Assembly (NCBI GenBank): GCA_945872285.1
Contig: CAMBZR010000006.1
Span: forward strand, 1-64,000
DNA length: 64,000 bases
Reading direction: 5' to 3'
Origin: Bordetella parapertussis
Lineage (GTDB): Bacteria > Pseudomonadota > Gammaproteobacteria > Burkholderiales > Burkholderiaceae_B
In this document: one piece after another, positions 10,221-15,956 of the stretch
How the letters are laid out: the number at the start of each line of letters is the position of its first letter
Position numbering within the stretch: the first letter of the stretch is position 1
Program-made: the position numbers and the translations under genes
The notes under the pieces: generated by a model
The model's database searches: none
What the model saw: only the letters and a program-made list of their open reading frames with translations
What the model was told of the DNA's origin: nothing

Positions 10221-11813
10221 ATGCACCAGCGTATTTTGATTCTTGATTACGGCTCACAAGTGACCCAGTTGATTGCGCGTCGTGTGCGCGAGGCTGGCGT
10301 GTATTGTGAACTTCATCCAGGCGATGTCTCGGCCGAGTTTTTACAGAATCAGTTGTTGCAGGGTTTAAAAGGCATCATTTTGTCGGGCAGTCATGCCTCG
10401 GCCTATGATGAATCATCCCTTAAAGTACCTGCCGAAGTTTTTAGTGCGGGGGTGCCGGTACTAGGGATTTGTTATGGCATGCAGGCCATGGCGCAACAGC
10501 TTGGCGGCGAGGTCAGTTACGCCGACCACCGTGAATTCGGCTATGCCGAAGTGCGCGCGCGCGGCCACACACGGTTGCTGATAGATATCGACGACTTCAC
10601 CACGCCCGAAGGGCATGGGATGCTCAAAGTCTGGATGAGTCACGGTGATCAAGTGACGCGTTTGCCTGAAGGTTTCAAAGTGATGGCCTCGACCGCGTCA
10701 TGCCCGATTGCTGGCATGGCTGACGAGGCCCGCAGGTTTTATGCGGTGCAGTTTCATCCTGAAGTCACACACACAGTGAAAGGCCAAGCCTTGCTCGAGC
10801 GCTTTGTGCACGAGATCTGCGAGTGCCAGGGCGATTGGACCATGCCCAATTATGTTGACGAAGCGATTGCACGTATCCGTCAACAGGTCGGCACTGATGA
10901 GGTGATTTTGGGCTTGTCGGGTGGCGTTGATTCATCTGTCGCTGCAGCGTTAATTCACAAGGCGATTGGCGACCGCCTAACGTGCGTGTTTGTTGATCAC
11001 GGTTTGCTGCGCTTAGATGAAGGCAAGCAGGTGATGGAAACCTTTGCTCAAAACATGGGCGTGCGTATTATTCATGTTGACGCCACCGAGCAATTTATGG
11101 GCAAACTTGCAGGGGTGTCTGACCCCGAAGCCAAGCGCAAGATTATTGGTCGTGAGTTTGTTGAAGTGTTTCAGGTTGAGGCGGGCAAACTCAAACAAGC
11201 TAAGTGGCTTGCACAAGGCACGATCTATCCTGATGTGATTGAATCAGCCGGTGCAAAAACGGGCAAAGCCATGGCGATCAAGTCGCATCACAATGTGGGT
11301 GGCTTACCCGATACCTTGAATTTGAAATTACTCGAGCCCTTGCGTGAGTTGTTCAAAGACGAGGTGCGCAAACTAGGGGTAGCCTTAGGCTTGCCACACG
11401 GCATGGTGTATCGCCATCCGTTTCCGGGCCCCGGCTTAGGTGTGCGCATCTTGGGTGCCGTCACAACAGAATTTGCAGATCTGCTGCGCCGCGCCGACGC
11501 GATCTTTATCGAAGAACTTCGCAACACCATCGACCCAGAAACTAAACAAAGCTGGTACGACTTAACCTCGCAAGCGTTTGCCGTGTTCTTGCCTGTTAAG
11601 TCAGTGGGTGTGATGGGTGACGGTCGCACCTACGACTATGTGGTGGCGCTGCGCGCTGTTCAAACGTCAGATTTTATGACTGCAGATTGGGCGCCGTTAC
11701 CTTACCCCCTGTTAGGCAAAGTTTCGTCGCGCATTATCAACGAGGTACGCGGCATTAACCGCGTGGTGTACGACGTGTCTAGTAAGCCGCCCGCGACTAT
11801 TGAGTGGGAGTGA
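10221..11813 (+). CDS. guaA: GMP synthase (glutamine-hydrolysing)
   Basis: Amidates XMP to GMP. Class I glutamine amidotransferase domain at the N-terminus (nucleophile Cys84 in LGICYGM, and QFHPEV with His and Glu), then the PP-loop ATP pyrophosphatase domain (LSGGVDSS) and the C-terminal dimerisation domain ending TIEWE. 530 aa, normal. Its last 147 bp are repeated 4 kb downstream with many synonymous differences, so the gene is the integration target of a genomic island, and its present 3' end may have been supplied by that island. The reading frame is intact and looks functional. Confidence 0.98.
   Translation: MHQRILILDYGSQVTQLIARRVREAGVYCELHPGDVSAEFLQNQLLQGLKGIILSGSHASAYDESSLKVPAEVFSAGVPVLGICYGMQAMAQQLGGEVSYADHREFGYAEVRARGHTRLLIDIDDFTTPEGHGMLKVWMSHGDQVTRLPEGFKVMASTASCPIAGMADEARRFYAVQFHPEVTHTVKGQALLERFVHEICECQGDWTMPNYVDEAIARIRQQVGTDEVILGLSGGVDSSVAAALIHKAIGDRLTCVFVDHGLLRLDEGKQVMETFAQNMGVRIIHVDATEQFMGKLAGVSDPEAKRKIIGREFVEVFQVEAGKLKQAKWLAQGTIYPDVIESAGAKTGKAMAIKSHHNVGGLPDTLNLKLLEPLRELFKDEVRKLGVALGLPHGMVYRHPFPGPGLGVRILGAVTTEFADLLRRADAIFIEELRNTIDPETKQSWYDLTSQAFAVFLPVKSVGVMGDGRTYDYVVALRAVQTSDFMTADWAPLPYPLLGKVSSRIINEVRGINRVVYDVSSKPPATIEWE
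11667..11813 (+). repeat. left copy of duplicated guaA 3' end (attL-like)
   Basis: Codes for the last 48 residues of GuaA from SDFMTADWAPLPYPL to the stop. It aligns without gaps with 15810-15956. By hand count there are about 33 differences in 147 bases, and only three change an amino acid (G to A, A to E, E to K). The final stop is TGA here and TAG in the other copy. Two diverged but protein-conserving copies bounding foreign DNA are what a gene-restoring integrating element leaves. Confidence 0.85.
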
Positions 11814-11865
11814 CTTTTGTAACGTAAGTTGTTGATTTATATAGGTTTTCAACTTACACAAAAGT
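11813..11865. repeat. large inverted repeat at the guaA stop codon
   Basis: ACTTTTGT-aac-GTAAGTTG (11813-11831) is complementary to CAACTTAC-ACAAAAGT (11850-11865): 16 bp paired with a 3-base bulge and an 18-base AT-rich loop. It begins on the last base of guaA. It could be the guaA terminator, although no T run follows, or recombinase-binding arms at the island edge. Confidence 0.6.
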
Positions 11866-11943
11866 TTCACGCAATACGCTAAGTCGTTGCTTTTAAACGC
11901 TTTTGGGTTTACAGTTACACAAAGAGTCGCACAGCGTTGCGTC

Positions 11944-12051
11944 AGCGTTAGGGTGTTGCAAAGCATTGCCCGTCACGCGAATATCTCAACTACACAGGCA
12001 TACATTGACGTAAATGACGCAATGAAACGCAAAGCGATAGAGTTGATTTAA
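11944..12051 (+). pseudogene. tyrosine recombinase 3' tail, copy 1
   Basis: 36 codons with no start, reading SVRVLQSIARH, then ANISTTQAYIDV, then NDAMKRKAIELI and stop. This is the extreme C-terminus of an XerC/D-like phage integrase: the box II histidine region, the STTQxY motif with the tyrosine nucleophile, and the usual VNDxMKRKAxEL tail. The rest of the gene is missing. A second copy at 13224-13331 has the same length and break point. Confidence 0.8.
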
Positions 12052-12054
12052 TCT

Positions 12055-14739: not shown

Positions 14740-14781
14740 ATTGTTAGCGATTCCTATCACAAATAAAAACGAGTCAAAATA

Positions 14782-15588
14782 ATGAATATACTCCTTGCAA
14801 TGATCTTAATTTTTTTTCTCATCATGCTGTTTAGTGCCACGATCGCCTATCTCATCATGCGTTGGTGCTTTTCCCCCAAAAGACACGCCGAGTTGGTTCA
14901 TAAATTCGATGGTATTAATATTTCGGGATTAAACGCTGGAGCCATAGTTTTACTCTCATTGGGCATCGCTTTTGTCTTCAGTGACATCTCAAATATCCAT
15001 ATCCGTGCAAAGACCTCATTATTGCAAGAGGCGGATGCGCTCCGTACACTTGGGCGTATATCACTAAATATTGAACCAGAAGTCGGAGCACCTCTCATGG
15101 AGGCAACACGTGCTTACGTTTCAGATGTTTTACAAAAAGAGTGGGCAGCGATGCAGCAAGGCAATGCGCTCTCCATTCGTCAGGGTACTCAAACCGCCCT
15201 CAAACCACTAACTGTTATGTCAGACATCGTTTACGACCCATTCAATTTTACTAAGCTTCAACCACTCACAGCTTCGCAACTCGGCAATCTTGTCGCGCGA
15301 ATTCGGGAGTATCGGCTCGTCAGAATTGAAATAAGTGAATACAGAATTGGTTCTCGCGGGCTAATTCTTGCCATCCTCACGCTACTCGCTTCGACTGTCA
15401 TATTATCTATGGCGATGCTTAAAAAGCCAGCAGCTCAATATTTGTGTATTTTTTCTTTTTTTGTGGTCAGTCTATCTGCGCTGTATCTGTCTTACGCGTC
15501 TCAAAATCCTTTTGCTGGCTTGGACGCGATCAGTAATGCGCCATTGCAAGAGGCCTCTGATCGCCTCAAAGTCATGCAGTTAAATTGA
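14782..15588 (+). CDS. DUF4239-like integral membrane protein, 268 aa
   Basis: Resembles the DUF4239 (bestrophin-like domain) family: two N-terminal spans (about residues 4-27 and 52-70), a long soluble part with EADALRTLGRISL, two C-terminal spans (about 203-250), and the closing motif NPFAGLDAISNAPLQEASDRL typical of the family. Function is unknown; a channel-like role has been suggested from fold similarity only. It lies between the IS and the right end of the island and is the only island cargo gene that looks complete. Family assignment is from memory of the motif. Confidence 0.65.
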   Translation: MNILLAMILIFFLIMLFSATIAYLIMRWCFSPKRHAELVHKFDGINISGLNAGAIVLLSLGIAFVFSDISNIHIRAKTSLLQEADALRTLGRISLNIEPEVGAPLMEATRAYVSDVLQKEWAAMQQGNALSIRQGTQTALKPLTVMSDIVYDPFNFTKLQPLTASQLGNLVARIREYRLVRIEISEYRIGSRGLILAILTLLASTVILSMAMLKKPAAQYLCIFSFFVVSLSALYLSYASQNPFAGLDAISNAPLQEASDRLKVMQLN

Positions 15589-15800
15589 AAATAATCAACG
15601 CACAGCGTTATGACTCTGCCAACTTTCCCCCACATGTGTCCAAGTTTTTAACTGCACCCCCAACTGTTCAATTTTCAACCGGCGCCAACACATTACACAA
15701 AAAATAAAATACCGCTCTCCTTAATCAATACATCCAGAAATCTGCAGGATAGGTTATTCACAAAGATCTCAAACTGCGTTCAGCCTATCGAAGCCGTGTC

Positions 15801-15956
15801 ATGCGCGCCTCAGATTTCATGACCGCTGACTGGGCGCCTTTACCTTATCCATTGCTTGCTAAGGTTTCATCGCGAATCATCAACGAAGTCCGTGGCATCA
15901 ACCGGGTTGTATACGACGTATCAAGCAAACCACCCGAAACTATTAAGTGGGAGTAG
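15801..15956 (+). pseudogene. displaced guaA 3' end (attR-like copy)
   Basis: Codes for MRASDFMTADWAPLPYP and on to TIKWE and a TAG stop, matching the last 48 residues of GuaA. The repeated part is 15810-15956, the same length as in guaA itself. It has no guaA body upstream and the frame fades before 15801. It marks the right end of the island; 7 bases later the sugar dehydrogenase gene begins, so that gene was probably the original neighbour of guaA. Confidence 0.85.

What the first reader, a model, noticed from the sequence alone, without database searches (positions are those of the whole stretch)
11667..15956. Decayed genomic island that duplicated and restored the guaA 3' end
The last 147 bp of guaA recur without gaps at 15810-15956. 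About 33 bases differ by hand count, yet only 3 of 48 residues change. The 4 kb between the copies holds recombinase tails, an IS and foreign-looking genes. Established knowledge: the guaA 3' end is an integration site for islands with tyrosine integrases. Inference: one copy came in with the island, so the present GuaA C-terminus may be of foreign origin.
Basis: partly seen in the sequence, partly recalled or inferred. Interest (0 to 1): 0.75.

Follow-up and report, generated by a model that had tools for sequence, protein, structure and literature searches.

The report
guaA island carrying foreign guaA tail
A broken mobile island sits at the end of the bacterial gene guaA and carries at its far end a dead scrap of guaA that looks as if it came from another species, while the working gene seems to be the bacterium's own up to its last few bases.

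Summary
The repeat is real: 11667-11813 (guaA 3' end) and 15810-15956 match without gaps at 114/147 bases; 27 of 33 differences are at third codon positions. It brackets a decayed insertion: in three close relatives guaA runs straight into the sugar dehydrogenase gene, with no second tail. The left end (11814-11936) and the core GAGTGGGA (11802-11809; AAGTGGGA at 15945-15952) are those of guaA-targeting tyrosine-integrase islands, also present in other genomes of this genus.

One copy looks foreign, but it is the detached one. Copy B matches the guaA tail of another species (G032) at 93 of 95 bases over -147..-53, though the host guaA body is only 74% like G032; it is host-like at the 3' core, where the native flank resumes. 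Copy A falls in the host clade; its stop codon and 3' flank look island-derived. A second genome (G020) shows the same anatomy with a different donor (G009). Tree support from these short pieces is weak.

Best explanation: the incoming circle carried an attL-type site (donor guaA tail + core + island left end), not a normal attP, and recombined at the host guaA core. Such attL x attB integration is published for GIsul2. A modest but informative variant of a known kind.

The parts
10221..11813 (+). guaA, intact, 530 aa
   Evidence: (PF00117, PF00958)
11667..11813 (+). copy A: guaA 3' end in the working gene; host-clade type
11802..11809 (+). left att core GAGTGGGA; the TGA stop that follows (11811-11813) is shared with island-bearing G014, G008 and G029 (not G020 or G015, which have TAG); the three empty sites have TAG/TAA
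11814..11936 (+). left end (P' arm) of a guaA island family, with the repeats 11844-11862 / 11905-11923 (..TTACACAAA)
   Evidence: 85% to G014, 75-77% to G015, G008, G029 and G038, each directly after guaA; repeats
11944..12051 (+). first C-terminal remnant (36 codons with the stop) of a tyrosine-recombinase gene
   Evidence: weak Pfam hit
12055..13143 (-). alpha/beta-hydrolase (Peptidase_S9-like) gene, broken
   Evidence: 12457-13143: PF00326; 12055-12426: no family
13224..13331 (+). second copy of the recombinase remnant, 92%
13525..14753 (+). IS3-type insertion sequence with imperfect terminal inverted repeats and two transposase ORFs
   Evidence: PF01527, PF00665; 93-94% ends in G032, 91% in G011
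14782..15588 (+). bestrophin-like (PF14023) membrane protein gene
15638..15696 (+). short sequence repeated at many places in genomes of the genus, probably an IS end
15810..15956 (+). copy B: detached guaA tail, 5' edge at -147; G032-like to about -50, host-like at -13 and -4
15945..15952 (+). right att core, one base off (AAGTGGGA)
15964..17106 (+). glucose/sorbosone dehydrogenase gene, the native neighbour of guaA
   Evidence: 15957-17900 is 94-95% to the flanks of G031, G025, G007 over the lengths held

Best explanation
A guaA-targeting island fragment entered as a circle whose recombination site was of the attL type: the last ~147 bp of a donor's guaA, the core, then the island's left end. 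It recombined with the host attB at the GAGTGGGA core. The host guaA kept its own sequence up to the core and took its stop codon and 3' flank from the island. The donor's guaA tail ended up at the far right, joined at the core to the native flank. The insert now lacks an intact integrase and holds an IS. Shown: empty site, left end, core, discordant origin of B, native right flank. Inferred: the circle, the attL x attB step, the direction of transfer. Not explained: why the donor tail starts at -147.
For: Empty sites with guaA next to the dehydrogenase gene in G031, G025, G007. B against G032: 11 mismatches in 147, 9 of them in -52..-4, so 93/95 match upstream, while the host body is 74.4% to G032 and 92-93% to G025/G031. 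At 8 sites where the G032 trio and A/G031/G025 are fixed for different bases, B is donor-like at 6 of 6 from -106 to -49 and host-like at 2 of 2 (-13, -4). A+B and B+G031+G025 rejected in the reduced tree (AU 0.008, 0.011). Right ends of other islands carry no guaA tail but end in ..TATT|GAGTGGGA: G015, G026, G014, G020's first unit and G001 at this very site. G020: distal tail 94.6% to G009 against 81.0% to its own guaA, body to G009 81.3%; it groups with G009 (98/95 and 97/92 support); a 38-bp run identical to its own gene ends exactly at the core (permutation p 0.0018). Precedent: PMC9376610 (passages) reports attB recombining with attL on a donor plasmid, and cointegrates in all six tested colonies with a minimal int+attL plasmid.
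Against: The first tree (31 rows, 126 columns) rejected none of the tested clades; the two rejections come from a 19-row set chosen afterwards. Even there 'B inside the host clade' (p 0.096) and G020's distal tail with G020 (p 0.19) are not rejected, and B with the G032 trio has little support (37/81). The distal tail of a third genus member, G028, is closest to its own guaA (91.9%), so foreign origin is not general. A and B show no excess identity at the core. G020's distal tail is G009-like again at -4 and -1 and host-like at -52. No donor genome with the same island was found; G032's guaA is followed by a hydrolase gene only 28% like the window's. In GIsul2 the attL cointegrate was much rarer than the attR one.
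Confidence: 0.57

Rival explanations
1. e14/icd-type insertion: crossover at the 5' edge (-147); the island supplied copy A, and B is the host's displaced old tail.
For: Gives a ready reason for the sharp 5' edge, at about -147 in both the window and G020. Known for e14 in icd, 163 bp (PMC6379469, passages). A is more diverged from its sisters than the guaA body is.
Against: B is G032-like although both flanks are native to the G031/G025 lineage, so the host must first have exchanged its tail; the same twist is needed for G020 and G009. B turns host-like at the 3' core, and G020's distal tail from about -34 to -19, where this model expects no switch. In G020 the identical run ends at the 3' core.
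Confidence: 0.17
2. Campbell-type homologous recombination (RecA) between a circle carrying a guaA tail and the host guaA, without integrase.
For: Other small tail-ended inserts show no intact integrase among the ORFs listed: G028 (desaturase gene, duplicated stretch -85 to +112), G448 (PhyH gene), G374 (fasciclin gene and an integrase-like fragment), G363; the duplicated stretch itself would give the homology.
Against: The window insert starts exactly with the island left end after the core, and the donor/host switch lies near the core.
Confidence: 0.18
3. Mis-assembly or strain mixture.
For: The window's own assembly is not held, and many relatives are in hundreds of contigs.
Against: Native flanks on both sides, sharp edges, and the same anatomy in G020 on one contig.
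Confidence: 0.04

Closest known systems
guaA-associated genomic islands (GIsul2, ICERspD18B; Song et al. 2012, seen only as cited in PMC7775301)
   Same: Insertion at the 3' end of guaA, core GAGTGGGA, tyrosine integrase in intact members
   Different: Here the right end is a foreign ~147-bp guaA tail, not the usual P arm; only C-terminal recombinase scraps remain; the left end belongs to a family whose integrase (G020, 429 aa) hits PF00589. Whether that integrase is P4-type, and whether an alpA gene goes with it, was not tested
e14 element in icd of E. coli (PMC6379469, passages)
   Same: Duplicated 3' end of a housekeeping gene (163 bp) on both sides of an element
   Different: In e14 the element supplies the gene's end and the detached copy is the host's; here the detached copy is the discordant one
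attL x attB cointegrates of GIsul2 (PMC9376610, passages)
   Same: An attL-bearing circle inserts at the guaA attB
   Different: Plasmid experiment; here inferred from anatomy
Complete or truncated guaA beside cfr(D) on enterococcal mobile DNA (PMC10936028, PMC7766396, passages)
   Same: A guaA piece carried on mobile DNA
   Different: Flanked by IS elements; the passages mention no att core and no host guaA at the site

Membership tests
guaA-associated genomic islands | insertion at the 3' end of guaA, empty site in relatives | tested here: met
guaA-associated genomic islands | core GAGTGGGA at both ends | tested here: inconclusive
   left 8/8, right 7/8
guaA-associated genomic islands | own intact tyrosine integrase | tested here: not met
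   only two 36-codon scraps
guaA-associated genomic islands | left end shared with integrase-bearing guaA islands | tested here: met
   11814-11936 against G014, G015, G008, G029; integrase pieces in G015 and G014, and by eye in G029
guaA-associated genomic islands | P4-type integrase with alpA | not tested
   no integrase gene left in the window to test
e14/icd-type tail-replacing element | the gene copy is foreign and the detached copy is the host's | tested here: not met
   short alignments, wide tree not decisive

The most novel reading that the evidence does not exclude
guaA 3' tails travel as part of small, integrase-less cassettes (one or a few cargo genes followed by a guaA tail and core) that are captured at guaA and carry in their tail a record of an earlier host: loosely like integron cassettes with a housekeeping-gene tail as the site.
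Probability: 0.2. Interest if true: 0.65.

Novelty: new variant of a known kind. Interest (0 to 1): 0.42.

Why it matters
A detached host-gene tail at the end of an island can act as a label of the species the island came from, which is seldom readable from decayed islands. It also shows that 'which copy is foreign' cannot be assumed from the e14/icd scheme and must be tested, and it gives a possible natural counterpart to the attL x attB integration seen with GIsul2.

Tried and rejected
Recent local duplication: rejected in the reduced tree only. Chance match: excluded. A switch of origin in copy A at -147: not found, best breakpoint -553. A -147 edge fixed by the system: not general; other edges are about -123, -99, -86, -84, -72. 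G032 contig C18 as the far side of G032's guaA island: no support. Shared cargo with G032: only distant hydrolases, 28%. Broader loci: 0 of 94 usable loci, out of 112 fetched (80, named genomes; 32, viral contigs), hold a distal guaA tail within the at most 10 kb held; one hit at -365..-297 was taken as chance. Plasmid search of 11600-16200: the 20 records listed of 2253 match the IS region only; the rest were not seen. Papers on a detached guaA tail at a guaA island: none seen in the listings; two papers with the phrase 'truncated guaA' (passages) describe IS-flanked enterococcal DNA.

Rows dropped or flawed: of the 60 genomes with any guaA match (some only partial or paralogous), 28 were aligned. 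Outgroup rows G033, G034, G036 (guaA 6 bp shorter) and G014 (3 bp shorter) were not realigned, which lowers their body identities and affects the body tree. The 19-row tail tree leaves out 12 of the 31 rows. mis-oriented the minus-strand loci; one search replaces it. Genomes with a second tail match left unresolved: G003 (identical contig ends, probably an overlap), G029, G088, G269, G290, G339, G405.

Full report
OBSERVATION. The last 147 bp of guaA (11667-11813) recur at 15810-15956 without gaps: 33 mismatches, 27 at third codon positions, 3 of 48 residues changed, and no similarity beyond either end. The match (114/147) stands far above anything else in the window (61, either strand) and above 50 shuffled queries (66).

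ANATOMY. Left to right: guaA; core GAGTGGGA (11802-11809); a 123-bp left end with two ..TTACACAAA repeats; a 36-codon recombinase tail; a broken alpha/beta-hydrolase gene on the minus strand; a second copy of the recombinase tail (92%); an IS3-type element (13525-14753); a bestrophin-like gene; a short sequence scattered through the genus; the detached guaA tail B; core AAGTGGGA (15945-15952); the sugar dehydrogenase gene at 15964. The island parts outside the IS have 41-44% G+C against 53% in guaA.

EMPTY AND OCCUPIED SITES. The window's assembly is not held; the nearest held genome is G001, one of 32 held of its genus. Among 28 relatives whose guaA end I aligned, three (G031, G025, G007) have guaA followed within a few bases by the same dehydrogenase gene, and none of the three has a second tail. 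The window's right flank (15957-17900) is 94-95% identical to these sites over the lengths held. G001 has at this site another island whose right end is ..AAGTATT|GAGTGGGA joined to the native flank, without a guaA tail. Similar right ends (..TATT|GAGTGGGA) close island units in G015, G026, G014 and the first unit of G020. The window's left end is shared with G014, G015, G008, G029 and, in another family, G038, each directly after guaA. An integrase gene or a piece of one follows in G020, G015 and G014 and, by eye, in G029. So the insertion belongs with guaA islands of the known GAGTGGGA core (PMC9376610 and PMC7775301, passages).

WHICH COPY IS FOREIGN. The host guaA body is 92.7% and 92.3% identical to G025 and G031, and 74.4% to G032. 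Copy B is 92.5% identical to G032's tail, with only 2 mismatches in -147..-53. At 8 sites where the G032 trio and A/G031/G025 are fixed for different bases, B is donor-like at the 6 from -106 to -49 and host-like at the 2 at -13 and -4. So B is foreign upstream and native at the core, where the native flank resumes. Copy A lies with the host clade (93/96 support in the wide tree). Trees of 126 columns are weak. The wide set rejects none of the tested clades. The reduced set, chosen afterwards, rejects A+B (0.008) and B+G031+G025 (0.011) but not B within the host clade (0.096), and gives B with the G032 trio little support (37/81). A is more diverged from its two sisters than the body is (third positions, Fisher p 0.016 and 0.003, two correlated tests), and G001 agrees with the sisters at 34/34 tail bases against 30/34 with the window. 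But 131 and 40 of 1447 windows along guaA are as diverged from G025 and G031, and the best breakpoint is at -553. An exchange of A within the clade is therefore possible, not shown.

A SECOND CASE. G020 carries guaA, a 13.4-kb island (integrase; ORFs of a type I restriction-modification system, of which I checked the methylase: N6_Mtase and HsdM_N), a core, a 1.2-kb unit with a PIN-domain toxin gene and a probable Phd-type antitoxin gene (PIN_2 strong; the antitoxin hit is below Pfam's cut-off), a 147-bp guaA tail, a core, and the native flank. That tail is 94.6% identical to G009's and 81.0% to G020's own, while the G020 and G009 bodies are 81.3% alike. Of 28 sites where G009 and G020 differ it is G009-like at 24; the 4 host-like ones are -52, -34, -25 and -19, with -46, -4 and -1 G009-like. 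A 38-bp run identical to the own gene ends exactly at the core (permutation p 0.0018). It groups with G009 (98/95), though a clade with G020's own tail is not rejected (p 0.47 and 0.19). Two distal tails with different apparent donors and the same anatomy make coincidence unlikely.

HOW COMMON. A search with the 48-aa GuaA end found second matches in 7 of 268 family genomes (245 had any match) and in 7 further genomes among 399 of the order (371 had any match). Six lie downstream of guaA on the same contig: G020, G028, G374, G448, G363, G581. Their 5' edges are about -147, -86, -123, -72, -99, -84. Cargo includes a fatty-acid desaturase gene (G028), a PhyH gene (G448) and a fasciclin gene (G374). 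Two more tails lie about 100 bp after a tRNA-Glu gene, away from guaA, at matching places in G374 and G507. G028's tail is nearest its own guaA (91.9%), and G448's is identical to its own over most of its length. In 94 usable loci from named genomes and viral contigs none was found. Detached tails are rare but recur, and they are not always foreign.

MECHANISM. A normally excised island should have a P arm, not a guaA tail, on the left of its core. The window's insert reads as donor tail + core + left end, that is, an attL site on a circle. Recombination of that site with the host core gives exactly the order seen. PMC9376610 reports, on plasmids in recA-deficient E. coli, recombination of attB with attL (rarer than with attR), and cointegrates in all six colonies tested with a minimal int+attL plasmid (passages). 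The e14/icd scheme (PMC6379469, passages) explains the edge at -147 better but predicts the opposite origins of the copies. RecA-type integration through the shared tail remains open. How the donor tail was cut at -147 and joined to the island is unexplained.

VERDICT. Real, and ordinary in kind (a decayed guaA island). Its right end, an apparently foreign guaA tail, is unusual. GuaA's C-terminus is most likely the host's own; the discordant copy is the dead one.

Noticed in passing
11944-12051 and 13224-13331: A recombinase C-terminus is duplicated (108 bp, 92%) around the hydrolase remnant: a second gene-tail duplication around cargo inside the island.
   Followed up: partly
G029 contigs C59 and C74 (L179, L178): Two guaA 3' ends in one assembly are identical from -150 to -5 but differ at 13 sites in -247..-151; one is followed by an integrase-like gene, the other by another flank. 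Tail exchange or strain mixture.
   Followed up: partly
L158 (G374:C2:34206-34328), L159 (G507:C121:2621-2743): guaA tail fragments about 100 bp after a tRNA-Glu gene, away from guaA, at matching places in two species of another family.
   Followed up: partly
L034 / G020:C66: A 1.2-kb PIN toxin-antitoxin unit between two guaA-type cores, downstream of an island with a restriction-modification methylase.
   Followed up: partly
15638-15696: A 53-61 bp sequence with matches at many places in genomes of the genus, probably the end of an unidentified IS.
   Followed up: no
L036 / G028:C257: A desaturase gene inserted after guaA between two copies of a stretch covering -85 to +112 of the guaA end (87%).
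   Followed up: partly
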